Part shown: in pieces, positions 24,490 to 30,950 of the stretch | Layout of the letters: every line of letters starts with the position of its first letter | Numbering within the stretch: the first letter of the stretch is position 1 | Assembly: GCF_037101375.1 (NCBI RefSeq) | Contig: NZ_AP029020.1 | Span: forward strand, 248,001 to 312,000 | Reading direction: 5' to 3' | DNA length: 64,000 nt | Source: Acidovorax sp. DW039 | GTDB lineage: Bacteria; Pseudomonadota; Gammaproteobacteria; Burkholderiales; Burkholderiaceae_C | The notes under the pieces: generated by a model | What the model was told of the DNA's origin: nothing | Database searches by the model: none | Seen by the model: the letters and a program-made list of their open reading frames with translations, nothing else | Translations under genes and position numbers: made by a program

Positions 24490-25689
24490 GGAAGGTCTGC
24501 GAAATCCCGCTCGCCAGCCCGGCACAGCCTGATGTCGAGCGCCGCCTCACCTGATGCCTGCGCAATCCGCTTTTTGGGGCCGGTTTGACACCGTTTGCAG
24601 GCCTGGTTCAGCCCTTGTGGCACCACTTTGGCACCCCACAGACGCACCTATCCCTGCAGCGCCATGATCCGCTTCCTGGCCATCCACAGGTTGCCAAGCG
24701 CAAACAGCATCGTCAGACGCGCCGTGTTCTTCTCTAACCCACGGTAGCGTATCTTGGCATACCCAAACTGCTGCTTGATCACCCGGAACGGGTGCTCCAC
24801 CTTGGCCCGCACGCTGGCCTTCAGTCGCTCGACCTTCTCCAGCAGTTTGTGCAGCTCCCGATTGGCATCGAGCGTCTTGCGCTTGCCCGGGCGCATGGCT
24901 ACGTGCCACTTGATCTTGGCCTTGCTCCCTTGCATCTCCTGGCGCTTATCCACGCCCTGGTAGCCCGCGTCACCCCAGGCATGCTTCTCTTTGCCATGCA
25001 ACAGTCCTGCTGCCTGCGTCACATCGTTGACGTTGGCAGCTGTGCCGATGACGGTGTGCACCAGTCCTGAGTCGGCATCCACGCCAATGTGCGCCTTCAT
25101 GCCAAAGTGTCACTGGTTGCCCTTTTTGGTCTGGTGCATCTCTGGATCTCGCTCACCTTCTTTGTTCTTGGTTGAGCTGGGGGCAGCAATGATGGTGGCG
25201 TCCACGATGGTGCCGGTCTTGAGCATCAGGCCTTGCTGGGCCAGTCCGGTGTTGATGGCCGCCAGCACCTGCGGGGCCAGTTGGTGCTTCTCCAGCAAAT
25301 GGCGGAAACGCAGGATGGTGGTCTCATCGGGCATGCGAGCTGCACCATCAAGGCCTGCAAAGCGGCGGTACAGGGGCCGCTCGTGCAGTTCTTCTTCCAT
25401 GGACGGATCGCTCAGGTTCCACCACAGCTGCAGGCAATGGATGCGCAGCATGGTCTCGATAGGAAACGGTGGGCGCCCACCCAGGGCCTGGTGCGAGCCC
25501 CGGGCGAAGGGGGCAATGAGAGCCACCAGCGTTGCCCAGGGCACCACCTGGTTCATCTCATCGAGAAAGACCTCTTTGCGGGTCTTCTTGGGCAGTGGGT
25601 CCAGGCCCAGGGTGTATTGATCCATGGCGCCATTGTCTTGGATGCTTGGCGCTGGGGAGGATCAGGTCAGGAGGTTTTGCAGACCTTCC
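24490..25689 (-). mobile_element. IS5-family element, copy A
   Basis: A 1200-bp element with terminal inverted repeats starting GGAAGGTCTGC at both ends (24490 and 25689). It encodes one transposase on the minus strand, interrupted by a TGA. Its outer 30 bases differ at a few positions from copy B (for example G for A at position 12), whereas the transposase region appears identical. Confidence 0.85.
24648..25625 (-). pseudogene. IS5-family transposase with internal UGA (copy A)
   Basis: A 325-codon DDE transposase frame. It starts MDQYTLGLDPLPKKTRK, includes the first catalytic aspartate D142 in TIVDATIIAAPSS, and stops at codon 172 (TGA at 25110-25112). It continues in the same frame as HFGMKAHIGVDADSG with the second aspartate (GDAGYQGVDK) and the terminal KVEHPFRVIKQQFGY containing the catalytic Glu. 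In relatives the stop position is a tryptophan (QWHFGMK), so one base change explains it. The product of the first half lacks two catalytic residues. The identical defect occurs in copy B. Confidence 0.85.
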
Positions 25690-25794
25690 CTAGCTTCAGA
25701 ACAAGCAATTGTTTTAGAAAGTGGGCAAATGGGGCGTGAATGAGTCAACACTAAGCAAGGTCGGACAGCACCTCGCACAACGTCTAACACTAAA

Positions 25795-26815
25795 TCGCCC
25801 CGGGTTTGAACTGCCCCCCAGAAGTTGGACAGTTGCCTTGCTGCCAATCAGGCGGTGTTTCTCAGCCAGTATCCCACCGGGCTGAGTCCGTTCAATCTGA
25901 GCTTGATGCGCTCATGGTTGTAATAGAGAACGTAATCCTGCACGCCCGCTTCGAGCGTTTCCAAGACTGTTGGGAACAGCAAGCCGGAAGTACTCTGCTT
26001 TGAGGGTGCCGAAGAAGCTCTCAATTGCCGCATTGTCAAAGCGGTTGCCTTTTCGGCTCATGCTCTGCTTGACTCCCCGTTGCACAAGCAACGCTCTATA
26101 GGGCTGCATCCTTTAGTGCCAACCTTGGTCGGAATGGACGAAAGTTCCCCCGTGCAAACGGTCCGCGCCAGCGCTGCCTCGATCTCGCGGTTGTACAGAT
26201 CCATGCATACTGACAGGTAGAGCTTGTGGCCATTCACATTGAACTCGGTGACATCGGTTGCCCACTTCTGGTTTGGTGCGATCGCACAGAAGTCTCGCTG
26301 CAGAACGCTCGGCACGTGTGCATCGCTGACGCCTAGAGCACGCCGGGACCGCATGTTCGCCCGAATCATCGCGCGCAGCCCCCTCTTGCGCATCAGACGC
26401 TGCACGCACTTGGGGTTGATAAGCTCCGCCACCGCATTGCATAGCGCGGCCGTGATCCGTCTGTAGCCGTTGCGTCCTTCATGCTCGTCACACCATACAT
26501 CCAAGGCGCTTTGCTGGTCAGTGCGTTGGCTCGCCTTGCATTGGTAGTTGAACGTGCTGCGTGGCAGGCCTGCGACCTGCAACAGGTATGCCAATTTATG
26601 ACGATTCCTCAACCCGGAAATCAGACGCGCTTTGTCGGCGCAGCTGATCTCCTCGACCGAATCAAGGCCTCCAATTTTTTGAGGCACGCGACCTCGGCAC
26701 GCAGTCGTTCGTTCTCTTCTTTTAGTGTTTGCGGCACATCGGCGCGCCCCACGGGCTTTGCTTGCTTCGCTGTACTCAGTCCAATAGGGGAGCTTGTAGC
26801 TGGTCTTTAGCTATA
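25795..26815 (-). mobile_element. IS3-family (IS150-like) element, degenerate
   Basis: Reading right to left: the OrfA end and OrfB start (LKEENERLRAEVACLKK, about 26730-26680), then an OrfB integrase core with the first Asp in WATDVTEFNVNGHKLYLS. A frameshift occurs in the DQGW region near 26110. MSRKGNRFDNAAIESFFGTL with the catalytic Glu follows in another frame, and then YYNHERIKLRLNGLSPVGYW. The right end carries CCCCCCAGAAGTTGGACA. The 5' part of OrfA and the left terminal repeat are missing. It lies inside the composite transposon and is inactive. Confidence 0.8.
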
Positions 26816-26816
26816 A

Positions 26817-26854
26817 ATTGCACACACCCCAGAAATGGGGGCTATCTGTGCAAT
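26817..26854. terminator. Hairpin after the hydrolase gene
   Basis: ATTGCACA and TGTGCAAT form a perfect 8-bp stem around an inner CCCC/GGGG stem, starting 24 bases beyond the hydrolase stop. It has no clear T-run, so it may be a weak terminator or an mRNA-stabilising hairpin. Confidence 0.4.
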
Positions 26855-28601: not shown

Positions 28602-28829
28602 ATGAAGTTCTCCGAGAGGACTTTTTCATGTGGAAGGCCTGCAAGAATGTAGATCGCACCTTGTTTTGCGGAGGCTGTTTGGTTCAAGTCAGCGTACTCC
28701 CACAGTGGCCTGACTGGCGAGTTACAAATAGTAGTTTGCCTCAGCTTCTACTGGTGGGATTTACCCATTGAGTCCAAGCGGGCGTTGGATTACTCGGCCT
28801 TATGGAGACCGTTGATGGTCTCAGCCAAG

Positions 28830-29620
28830 GCGTTGTCATAGCTCTGCCCTTGCGGCCACTGACGGCTCGATATCCGCTTCAGCCAGTCGCTCAGAGTACC
28901 GAATGCTGACGTTTTGCGACCCGCGGTCGCTATGGCACGTCAAGCTTCCATCCAGTTCAGGCTGGAGGGCGTACAGGGCTTGCTCCAGCCCATCGAGCAC
29001 GAAGTCGGTTAGCATCGAACCTCTCACTCGCCAGTCGACGATACAACGGGCCAACACATCGATCACAAAGGCTACGCAATGCCAGCCCTGCAAGATCGAG
29101 ACGTAAGTGAAGTCGCTGGCCCACAACCGATTGGACCTTTCAGCACAAAACTGGCGGTTGACCTGATCCAACGGGCAGGGTGTCTTTGCATCGCCGACCG
29201 TAGTGCGCATCACCTTTCCAAGCATTACCCGCGCAGGCCCAGGCTGAGCATCAGGCGCTCGACCTTACAACGCGCCACTGTCACATCTTGTAGACCTGCA
29301 CGTTGGCCTGCCAGACGCGTTGAATCTGCGGCATAAGCACCTCGTCGCGCTTGGCTCTGGCGCAGCAACTTGTGATGCTCGCGCATCAGGGCGGCGTGGT
29401 GTCAATACGCAGACGGGGCGCCCTTCAAGACCTTTCAGAGCGGCTCAACCCCGAAAGCATTGCGCTACTTGTCGATAAAGGCCTTCACGGCTTGAGTCGG
29501 TGGTAGAGCTCCGCCTGAGCGAAAAACGCGCTGGCCAGCTTCAATATCTCGTTAGGCGATGGATTCGATGGCGGCCCACAGCGATGGGTATAACGACCTG
29601 CTGCGTCCACCGAATACGAC
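28830..29620 (-). mobile_element. IS3-family element remnant
   Basis: Minus-strand fragments of OrfA (YPSLWAAIESIA near 29590, NEILKLASAFFAQAEL near 29520) and OrfB (AVKAFIDK near 29480; CPLDQVNRQFCAERSNRLWA, CHSDRGSQNVSIRYSERLAE at 29170-28880). An internal OrfA deletion, several stops and a missing 3' end make it inactive. This is a different IS3 group from the element at 25795. The remaining DNA to 29750 shows no further feature. Confidence 0.75.
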
Positions 29621-29750
29621 CACTGAGGTAGTAGCAGACGCCAATGCGCCAGCCGAACACAATAATTCGTTGTTAAACGGTTCCAAATGGTGCACCAGTT
29701 CCAGCAGGCAGATTGATTCAGCATTTGTCGCTACTCCCTTTGTAAGCTAG

Positions 29751-30950
29751 GGAAGGTCTGCAAAACCTCCTGACCTGATCCTCCCCAGCGCCAAGCATCC
29801 AAGACAATGGCGCCATGGATCAATACACCCTGGGCCTGGACCCACTGCCCAAGAAGACCCGCAAAGAGGTCTTTCTCGATGAGATGAACCAGGTGGTGCC
29901 CTGGGCAACGCTGGTGGCTCTCATTGCCCCCTTCGCCCGGGGCTCGCACCAGGCCCTGGGTGGGCGCCCACCGTTTCCTATCGAGACCATGCTGCGCATC
30001 CACTGCCTGCAGCTGTGGTGGAACCTGAGCGATCCGTCCATGGAAGAAGAACTGCACGAGCGGCCCCTGTACCGCCGCTTTGCAGGCCTTGATGGTGCAG
30101 CTCGCATGCCCGATGAGACCACCATCCTGCGTTTCCGCCATTTGCTGGAGAAGCACCAACTGGCCCCGCAGGTGCTGGCGGCCATCAACACCGGACTGGC
30201 CCAGCAAGGCCTGATGCTCAAGACCGGCACCATCGTGGACGCCACCATCATTGCTGCCCCCAGCTCAACCAAGAACAAAGAAGGTGAGCGAGATCCAGAG
30301 ATGCACCAGACCAAAAAGGGCAACCAGTGACACTTTGGCATGAAGGCGCACATTGGCGTGGATGCCGACTCAGGACTGGTGCACACCGTCATCGGCACAG
30401 CTGCCAACGTCAACGATGTGACGCAGGCAGCAGGACTGTTGCATGGCAAAGAGAAGCATGCCTGGGGTGACGCGGGCTACCAGGGCGTGGATAAGCGCCA
30501 GGAGATGCAAGGGAGCAAGGCCAAGATCAAGTGGCACGTAGCCATGCGCCCGGGCAAGCGCAAGACGCTCGATGCCAATCGGGAGCTGCACAAACTGCTG
30601 GAGAAGGTCGAGCGACTGAAGGCCAGCGTGCGGGCCAAGGTGGAGCACCCGTTCCGGGTGATCAAGCAGCAGTTTGGGTATGCCAAGATACGCTACCGTG
30701 GGTTAGAGAAGAACACGGCGCGTCTGACGATGCTGTTTGCGCTTGGCAACCTGTGGATGGCCAGGAAGCGGATCATGGCGCTGCAGGGATAGGTGCGTCT
30801 GTGGGGTGCCAAAGTGGTGCCACAAGGGCTGAACCAGGCCTGCAAACGGTGTCAAACCGGCCCCAAAAAGCGGATTGCGCAGGCATCAGGTGAGGCGGCG
30901 CTCGACATCAGGCTGTGCCGGGCTGGCGAATGGGATTTTGCAGACCTTCC
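29751..30950 (+). mobile_element. IS5-family element, copy B
   Basis: A 1200-bp copy inverted relative to copy A, with the same GGAAGGTCTGC termini. Left flank CTAG (29747-29750), right flank TTAG (30951-30954). The transposase region gives the same translation as copy A throughout, so the two copies are recent relatives or are kept alike by gene conversion. Confidence 0.85.
29815..30792 (+). pseudogene. IS5-family transposase with internal UGA (copy B)
   Basis: The same 325-codon transposase frame as copy A, with the same TGA at codon 172 (30328-30330) between the first (D142) and second catalytic aspartates. If made by readthrough the protein would be full length for the family; otherwise only an inactive 171-residue N-terminal piece is translated. 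An internal ATG at 30340 could start the second half. See the copy A entry for motifs. Confidence 0.85.

What the first reader, a model, noticed from the sequence alone, without database searches (positions are those of the whole stretch)
24648..30792. Two IS5 copies share the same internal UGA in the transposase
Both copies stop at codon 172, where relatives have the Trp of QWHFGMK, between the first and second catalytic aspartates. A dead element should not multiply by itself. Either a UGA readthrough makes the enzyme, an active relative acts in trans, or one copy overwrote the other by gene conversion. Readthrough-controlled transposition would be unusual for IS5.
Basis: partly seen in the sequence, partly recalled or inferred. 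Interest (0 to 1): 0.7.

Follow-up and report, generated by a model that had tools for sequence, protein, structure and literature searches.

The report
IS5 copies sharing one stop codon
Three near-identical copies of a jumping gene on one plasmid-sized contig share the same stop codon in their transposase; the pattern of differences points to an ordinary broken gene copied between sites by recombination rather than to a special way of reading the stop.

Summary
Copies A (24490-25689, -) and B (29751-30950, +) carry TGA at codon 172, where 201 of 204 readable listed relatives have Trp; a third 1200-bp copy, C, about 232 kb away on the same 365-kb contig, has it too. B and C are identical over the first 972 bp, TGA included, then differ at 9 of the last 228. 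After allowing for a faster-evolving 3' end this has a chance of 4e-5 to 4e-4. So an older, diverged copy at one locus probably had its 5' part, stop included, replaced by homologous exchange. Purifying selection against G316 is strong (dN/dS 0.03-0.08), so the stop looks recent. No UCA-anticodon tRNA was seen, and in the family sample TGA occurs in 1 of 399 genomes, this one. Best reading: one nonsense-broken IS5 lineage spread or homogenised by gene conversion. Low-level readthrough and help in trans are not excluded. Both readings have precedents: ISCaa9 (15 IS5-family copies sharing a UGA at Trp, readthrough proposed) and Wolbachia wBm (dead IS copies kept alike by conversion).

The parts
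24490..25689 (-). Copy A, IS5-family element, 1200-bp core
25110..25625 (-). Copy A, first piece of the transposase frame (171 aa); the TGA stop is 25110-25112
   Evidence: NCBIfam NF033581 positions 1-150 for the identical piece of copy B
24648..25109 (-). Copy A, second piece (153 codons after the stop; ATG of the listed ORF at 25100)
   Evidence: NF033581 positions 152-285 for the identical piece of copy B
29751..30950 (+). Copy B, IS5-family element, 1200-bp core
29815..30330 (+). Copy B, first piece of the transposase frame (171 aa); TGA at 30328-30330
30331..30792 (+). Copy B, second piece (153 codons; ATG at 30340, 9 nt after the stop)
24486..24489 (.). Outer flank of copy A, TTAG (+ strand)
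25690..25693 (.). Inner flank of copy A, CTAG
29747..29750 (.). Inner flank of copy B, CTAG
30951..30954 (.). Outer flank of copy B, TTAG; same 4 bp as the outer flank of A, as a composite insertion of A to B would leave (inference)

Best explanation
The three copies belong to one IS5-family element whose transposase gene was recently broken by a nonsense change at a conserved Trp codon. The broken sequence was then carried to at least one other locus by homologous exchange (gene conversion) between copies on the same contig. Shown: the three TGA copies; no near-identical copy with Trp found in this genome; the B/C mosaic with an identical 972-bp tract spanning the TGA; purifying selection in the comparison with G316; no matched 4-bp target duplication at any of the three copies. 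Inferred: that exchange rather than another process made the mosaic, its direction, and that no full-length enzyme is made.
For: B and C show 0 of 972 differences in the 5' part and 9 of 228 in the 3' part. The chance that all 9 fall in the 3' part is 3e-7 for even rates, 3.7e-5 with the B-G316 rate split and 3.8e-4 with the G316-G318 split; within the ORF, 4 of 4 differences fall in the last 70 of 978 bp, 2.6e-5. In element orientation the 4-bp flanks are A CTAG/CTAA, B CTAG/TTAG, C TCAG/TTAA, all mismatched, while three open relatives have perfect ones: L004 CTAA/CTAA, L005 CTAG/CTAG, G316 CTAG/CTAG. PMC11708052 (abstract) names recombination between ISs as a frequent cause of missing duplications. 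Relatives have Trp: 201 of 204 readable among 240 listed. P0121, a 327-aa relative with Trp, has 169/171 and 151/155 identities to the two pieces. TGA occurs in 1 of 399 sampled family genomes. dN/dS against G316 is 0.03 (codons 1-171) and 0.075 (codons 173-325). Precedent: dead IS copies kept alike by gene conversion in Wolbachia wBm, as described in a Discussion passage of PMC3196728.
Against: The mosaic rests on 9 differences. Nothing in the 4 A-B differences shows exchange between A and B; they could equally be recent transposition products. The three loci have unrelated flanks, so three insertions did happen, and nothing here dates them before the TGA. The flank argument is soft: B matches if only 3 bp (TAG) are counted, A if only CTA, and the outgroup G318, which has Trp, is mismatched too (TTAA/CTGG). 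No strains with and without each insertion were available.
Confidence: 0.68

Rival explanations
1. Low-level decoding of the UGA (by tRNA-Trp or another near-cognate tRNA) makes a little full-length transposase, enough to move the element, and so limits its activity.
For: A single stop in an otherwise open 325-codon frame. The stop is UGA followed by C, which I recall as a leaky context; that UGA misreading usually gives Trp is recalled too. One other IS5-family gene with a single TGA at this Trp in a full-length frame was found, L063, a Comamonadaceae MAG (168 codons from its first ATG before the stop, 149 after). ISCaa9 is a published proposal of the same kind (PMC3196728, section 8).
Against: No UCA anticodon among the tRNAs read; tRNA-Trp has G24 by my reading; no tRNA-Sec over its cut-off. 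No unusual structure in the 90 nt after the stop in copy B (z 0.71). The context around the stop is inherited from Trp-coding relatives. No other genome looked at has more than one TGA copy by the exact pattern: 1 each in 6 of 6. The mosaic explains sharing without new transposition.
Confidence: 0.11
2. An intact relative supplies transposase in trans and has mobilised the TGA copies.
For: Two open IS5-family genes (333 and 334 codons stop to stop, Trp present) lie on the same contig, at C2:220091 and C2:121229. One end of L004 begins GGAAGGTCTGCA like this element's end and is a two-mismatch match to the 15-bp pattern. A nearly identical Trp-bearing protein exists elsewhere (P0121; its source is not shown) and could have been present in the past.
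Against: Per-piece identity to this transposase is only 55-58% and 64-65%. In this genome the 15-bp end occurs with at most one mismatch only at the six ends of A, B and C. The relatives' other ends differ (L004 GGATTC..., L005 GGATTC... and GGAAGCTC...).
Confidence: 0.12
3. Termination and restart at the ATG 9 nt after the stop give two chains that assemble into a working two-part transposase.
For: An in-frame ATG lies just after the stop in all three copies.
Against: That ATG is the Met of the conserved FGMK motif, present in Trp-bearing relatives too, so it was not selected for restart. The literature was not searched for two-chain transposases.
Confidence: 0.04
4. The TGA is an assembly or sequencing error repeated over the copies.
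For: Repeats are often polished together (recalled).
Against: The copies are resolved by 4 to 13 other differences in an assembly of two contigs.
Confidence: 0.03

Closest known systems
ISCaa9 of Amoebophilus asiaticus (IS5 family, IS1031-like; PMC3196728, section 8 and passages read)
   Same: IS5 family; an in-frame UGA shared by all copies at a position where most relatives have Trp; readthrough proposed there, not shown
   Different: 15 copies, UGA followed by A, an additional -1 frameshift, different IS5 subgroup, stop at nt 263-265 rather than codon 172. Those authors largely ruled out gene conversion for their genome; here a mosaic speaks for it
Non-functional IS copies of Wolbachia wBm kept alike by gene conversion (Cordaux 2009; seen only as cited in PMC3196728 and PMC3004938)
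   Same: Broken IS copies that remain near-identical at different loci
   Different: Multiple stops and frameshifts in an obligate symbiont there; a single stop in three copies on a plasmid-sized contig here
IS5-family transposase NF033581 (transpos_IS5_4), Pfam DDE_Tnp_1 with DUF772
   Same: Both pieces hit the one model over consecutive stretches, 1-150 and 152-285 of 285
   Different: Interrupted by TGA at the junction

Membership tests
IS5 family element | DDE transposase of the IS5 type | tested here: met
   NF033581 over cut-off for both pieces (170.2 and 153.9 bits, cut-off 140); PF05598 in the first, PF01609 in the second
IS5 family element | Terminal inverted repeats | tested here: met
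   GGAAGGTCTGC at both ends of all three copies, 1200-bp cores
IS5 family element | Short target duplication (usual, but often lost; not required) | tested here: inconclusive
   A, B and C have mismatched 4-bp flanks, though B matches over 3 bp; L004, L005 and G316 have perfect YTAR ones, G318 not
Programmed stop-codon readthrough element (ISCaa9-like) | Stop conserved among homologues | tested here: not met
   TGA in 1 of 399 family genomes, TGG at 37 sites in 22 of 100; close relatives G316 and G318 have TGG. One Comamonadaceae MAG in another collection (L063) has TGA in a distant gene
Programmed stop-codon readthrough element (ISCaa9-like) | Suppressor tRNA or stimulatory downstream structure | tested here: inconclusive
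   None seen, but the tRNA list is incomplete (no tRNA-Ile recovered) and neither feature is required for leaky UGA
Programmed stop-codon readthrough element (ISCaa9-like) | Full-length product | not testable with these tools
   needs protein or ribosome data
IS copies homogenised by gene conversion | Identical tract in copies that differ outside it | tested here: met
   B-C 0/972 then 9/228
IS copies homogenised by gene conversion | Insertions older than the shared tract | tested here: inconclusive
   no informative empty site found; B's outer flank has a homologue in G341 and in an Acidovorax plasmid, but the other side of that site is absent from the window

The most novel reading that the evidence does not exclude
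The UGA is decoded as an amino acid at a low rate, so that this IS5 has become a self-limited element that still transposes; the mosaic would then be a later exchange among working copies, and L063 may be a second element of this kind.
Probability: 0.09. Interest if true: 0.5.

Novelty: new member of a known kind. Interest (0 to 1): 0.22.

Why it matters
A stop shared by several IS copies has been taken as evidence of readthrough (ISCaa9, PMC3196728). This case shows how the same pattern can come from homologous exchange, and that the distribution of differences among copies helps to separate the two. If readthrough were shown here, it would be a simple brake on IS activity.

Tried and rejected
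UGA read through a suppressor tRNA: no UCA anticodon seen and normal tRNA-Trp; selenocysteine: no tRNA-Sec over cut-off, the sub-threshold matches lying on ordinary tRNA places. Downstream stimulatory RNA: none. Inversion between A and B as the cause of the mismatched flanks: rejected, because both inner flanks are the palindrome CTAG and inversion would not change them (reasoning). Composite insertion of A to B: consistent (outer TTAG/TTAG, inner CTAG/CTAG), but a 4-bp match among YTAR sites is weak and no empty site was found. Flanks of C against plasmids gave only partial matches of no use here. Close DNA relatives among plasmids: 11 records, all 60-80% identical, none covering 80% of the query; viral contigs: 0 matches to a 44-base pattern.

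TAG at the same Trp: 0 of 399 family genomes. With TGA in 1 of 399 this says nothing about a preference for UGA.

The rate test was first run as if all sites evolved alike (1 in 200000). The 3' end evolves two to three times faster in other pairs, so the weaker rate-weighted values are the ones to use.

I first counted four other IS5 genes (L058, L059, L060, L063) as having a single TGA with both halves open (note). A recount shows an earlier in-frame TGA in L058 and L060 that removes the N-terminal part, a short first half in L059, and a full frame only in L063. For that reason the readthrough odds were lowered slightly (0.12 to 0.11; novel case 0.10 to 0.09).
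Full report
Observation. The window holds two inverted copies of an IS5-family element, with 1200-bp cores at 24490-25689 (-) and 29751-30950 (+). In each, a frame beginning MDQYTLGLDP stops at codon 172 with TGA and stays open for 153 more codons. A search of the own genome gave a third full copy, C, at C2:39260-40459, with the same TGA. The genome's other matches to the query are 79% identical or less where they span 100 bases or more. Besides A, B and C, the exact Trp-motif pattern matches this genome only at C2:121656 and C2:220520, in two open relatives.

What the residue normally is. Of 240 listed protein relatives (120 of 7931 hits and 120 of 8000, both themselves capped), the motif could be read in 204: 201 Trp, 1 Arg, 1 Gly, 1 Tyr; 36 were not readable by my expression. 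In the first 38 fetched loci, 43 rows were read: 37 TGG, 5 TGA and 1 TAT. The 5 TGA rows are the three copies, A appearing in three overlapping loci, and a few TGG rows are repeats too. The nearest DNA relatives, G316 (91%) and G318 (89%), have TGG. G316 is open over 329 codons. G318 is broken elsewhere, by an 18-bp insertion with an in-frame stop. The closest protein, P0121 (327 aa, source not shown), has Trp and 169/171 plus 151/155 identities to the two pieces. So intact versions of nearly this transposase exist.

How the copies relate. The cores differ at 4 (A-B), 9 (B-C) and 13 (A-C) of 1200 positions. All 9 B-C differences lie in the last 228 bp; the first 972 bp, TGA included, are identical. 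In other pairs the 3' part also evolves faster: B-G316 61 and 29 differences, G316-G318 35 and 25. Weighted by these, the chance that all 9 fall in the 3' part is 3.7e-5 or 3.8e-4; within the ORF alone it is 2.6e-5. At 5 of the 9 positions C agrees with both outgroups and A/B do not; at 3 the reverse holds; at 1 neither agrees. The 3' ends therefore had separate histories before the 5' tract became identical. That is what a conversion tract looks like, and it covers the TGA. A differs from B at one silent position in the 5' part and at three positions within ten bases near the end, where B, C and both outgroups agree; this shows nothing about exchange between A and B.

Age of the stop. Between B and G316, dN/dS is 0.030 for codons 1-171 and 0.075 for codons 173-325, so the gene was kept functional over most of that comparison. 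Few neutral changes can have accumulated since the TGA. This fits a recent break; it would also fit continued function, so it does not decide against readthrough by itself.

Flanks. The six flanks share no sequence between loci; only the two sides of A share a 135-bp repeat. So three insertions took place at some time. Three open relatives have perfect 4-bp YTAR duplications (L004, L005, G316); A, B and C do not, nor does G318. Counting 3 bp only, B would match (TAG). For A and B the outer flanks are both TTAG and the inner both CTAG on the + strand, as if the 6.5-kb unit A to B had once moved as a composite; this is suggestive only. Homology of B's outer flank to G341 and to an Acidovorax temperans plasmid starts 5 bases beyond the core, which supports the junction. 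The other side of that site is not found in the window, so some rearrangement or loss followed.

Tests of readthrough. The genome gave 47 tRNA matches. ARAGORN was run on loci covering these places: one stretch (L135) gave no call, 37 anticodons were seen, none UCA, and there is one tRNA-Trp (CCA) place with G at position 24 by my reading. The list is not complete, as no tRNA-Ile turned up. No tRNA-Sec reached its cut-off. The 90 nt after the stop of copy B fold no better than shuffles. The stop is followed by C, recalled as leaky, but that context is inherited from the Trp-coding relatives. In genome contigs the TGA form of the motif occurs in 8 stretches: by my reading 6 are IS5-family genes and 2 (L057, L062) unrelated chance matches. 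Of the 6, only L063, a Comamonadaceae MAG, has a full-length frame with this single stop; L059 has a short first half; L058 and L060 have an earlier in-frame TGA; L056 and L061 are broken after it. In all 6 genomes there is one TGA site, beside 3 TGG sites in one and 2 in another. In the family sample TGA occurs in 1 of 399 genomes (this one), TAG in 0 of 399, and TGG at 37 sites in 22 of 100.

Help in trans. L004 and L005 are open over 333 and 334 codons, with 55-58% and 64-65% identity to the two pieces. Their ends match only in part, and the end of this element occurs in the genome with at most one mismatch only at A, B and C. Cross-mobilisation is possible but not indicated.

Literature. 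PMC3196728 (section 8 and passages read) describes ISCaa9, an IS5-family element with 15 almost identical copies that share a UGA where most relatives have Trp, and proposes readthrough; the same paper cites gene conversion as the way dead IS copies stay alike in Wolbachia wBm. PMC3004938 (passages read) reports recombination with conversion between the ends of an IS5-family element. [quoted passage not shown] Two narrow searches for UGA readthrough in transposases gave no paper; two broader ones gave 654 and 20 papers, of which 15 each were listed and, besides PMC3196728 and the abstract of PMC11708052, none opened, PMC5009743 included. ISCaa9 is named in 1 paper of the library. Most subscription papers are not in it.

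Verdict. The shared stop is real and looks recent. The simplest account is a broken IS5 lineage whose 5' four fifths, stop included, have been copied between loci by homologous exchange. The finding is ordinary in kind, with a modest lesson for similar claims.

Noticed in passing
window 24486-30954: A and B flank about 4 kb in inverted orientation, with equal 4-bp outer flanks (TTAG) and equal inner flanks (CTAG): possible composite transposon. The interior holds what looks by eye like an isochorismatase-type hydrolase and an AraC-type regulator plus IS3-type remnants; names not tested, except IS3 by hits.
   Followed up: partly
window 23817-24485: Remnant of another IS5-family element (78% to L004 over 694 bp) directly beside copy A.
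   Followed up: partly
window 23659-23793 and 25788-25922: A 135-bp direct repeat (82%) on either side of copy A.
   Followed up: no
window 15161-23253: RND efflux operon (permease region matches two records annotated adeF) next to what looks by eye like a two-component pair, about 1-9 kb from copy A.
   Followed up: no
L006 and L007: The same truncated IS5-family gene occurs on both contigs, C2:338702 and C1:442012.
   Followed up: no
L040 (G318): A close relative is inactivated in a different way, by an 18-bp insertion with an in-frame stop.
   Followed up: no
L063 (3259-3282): A distant IS5-family gene in a Comamonadaceae MAG with a single TGA at the same Trp in an otherwise full-length frame, one site in that genome.
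   Followed up: partly
G060: Twelve sites with the identical Trp-coding motif in one family member: probably a recent expansion of an IS5-family element.
   Followed up: no
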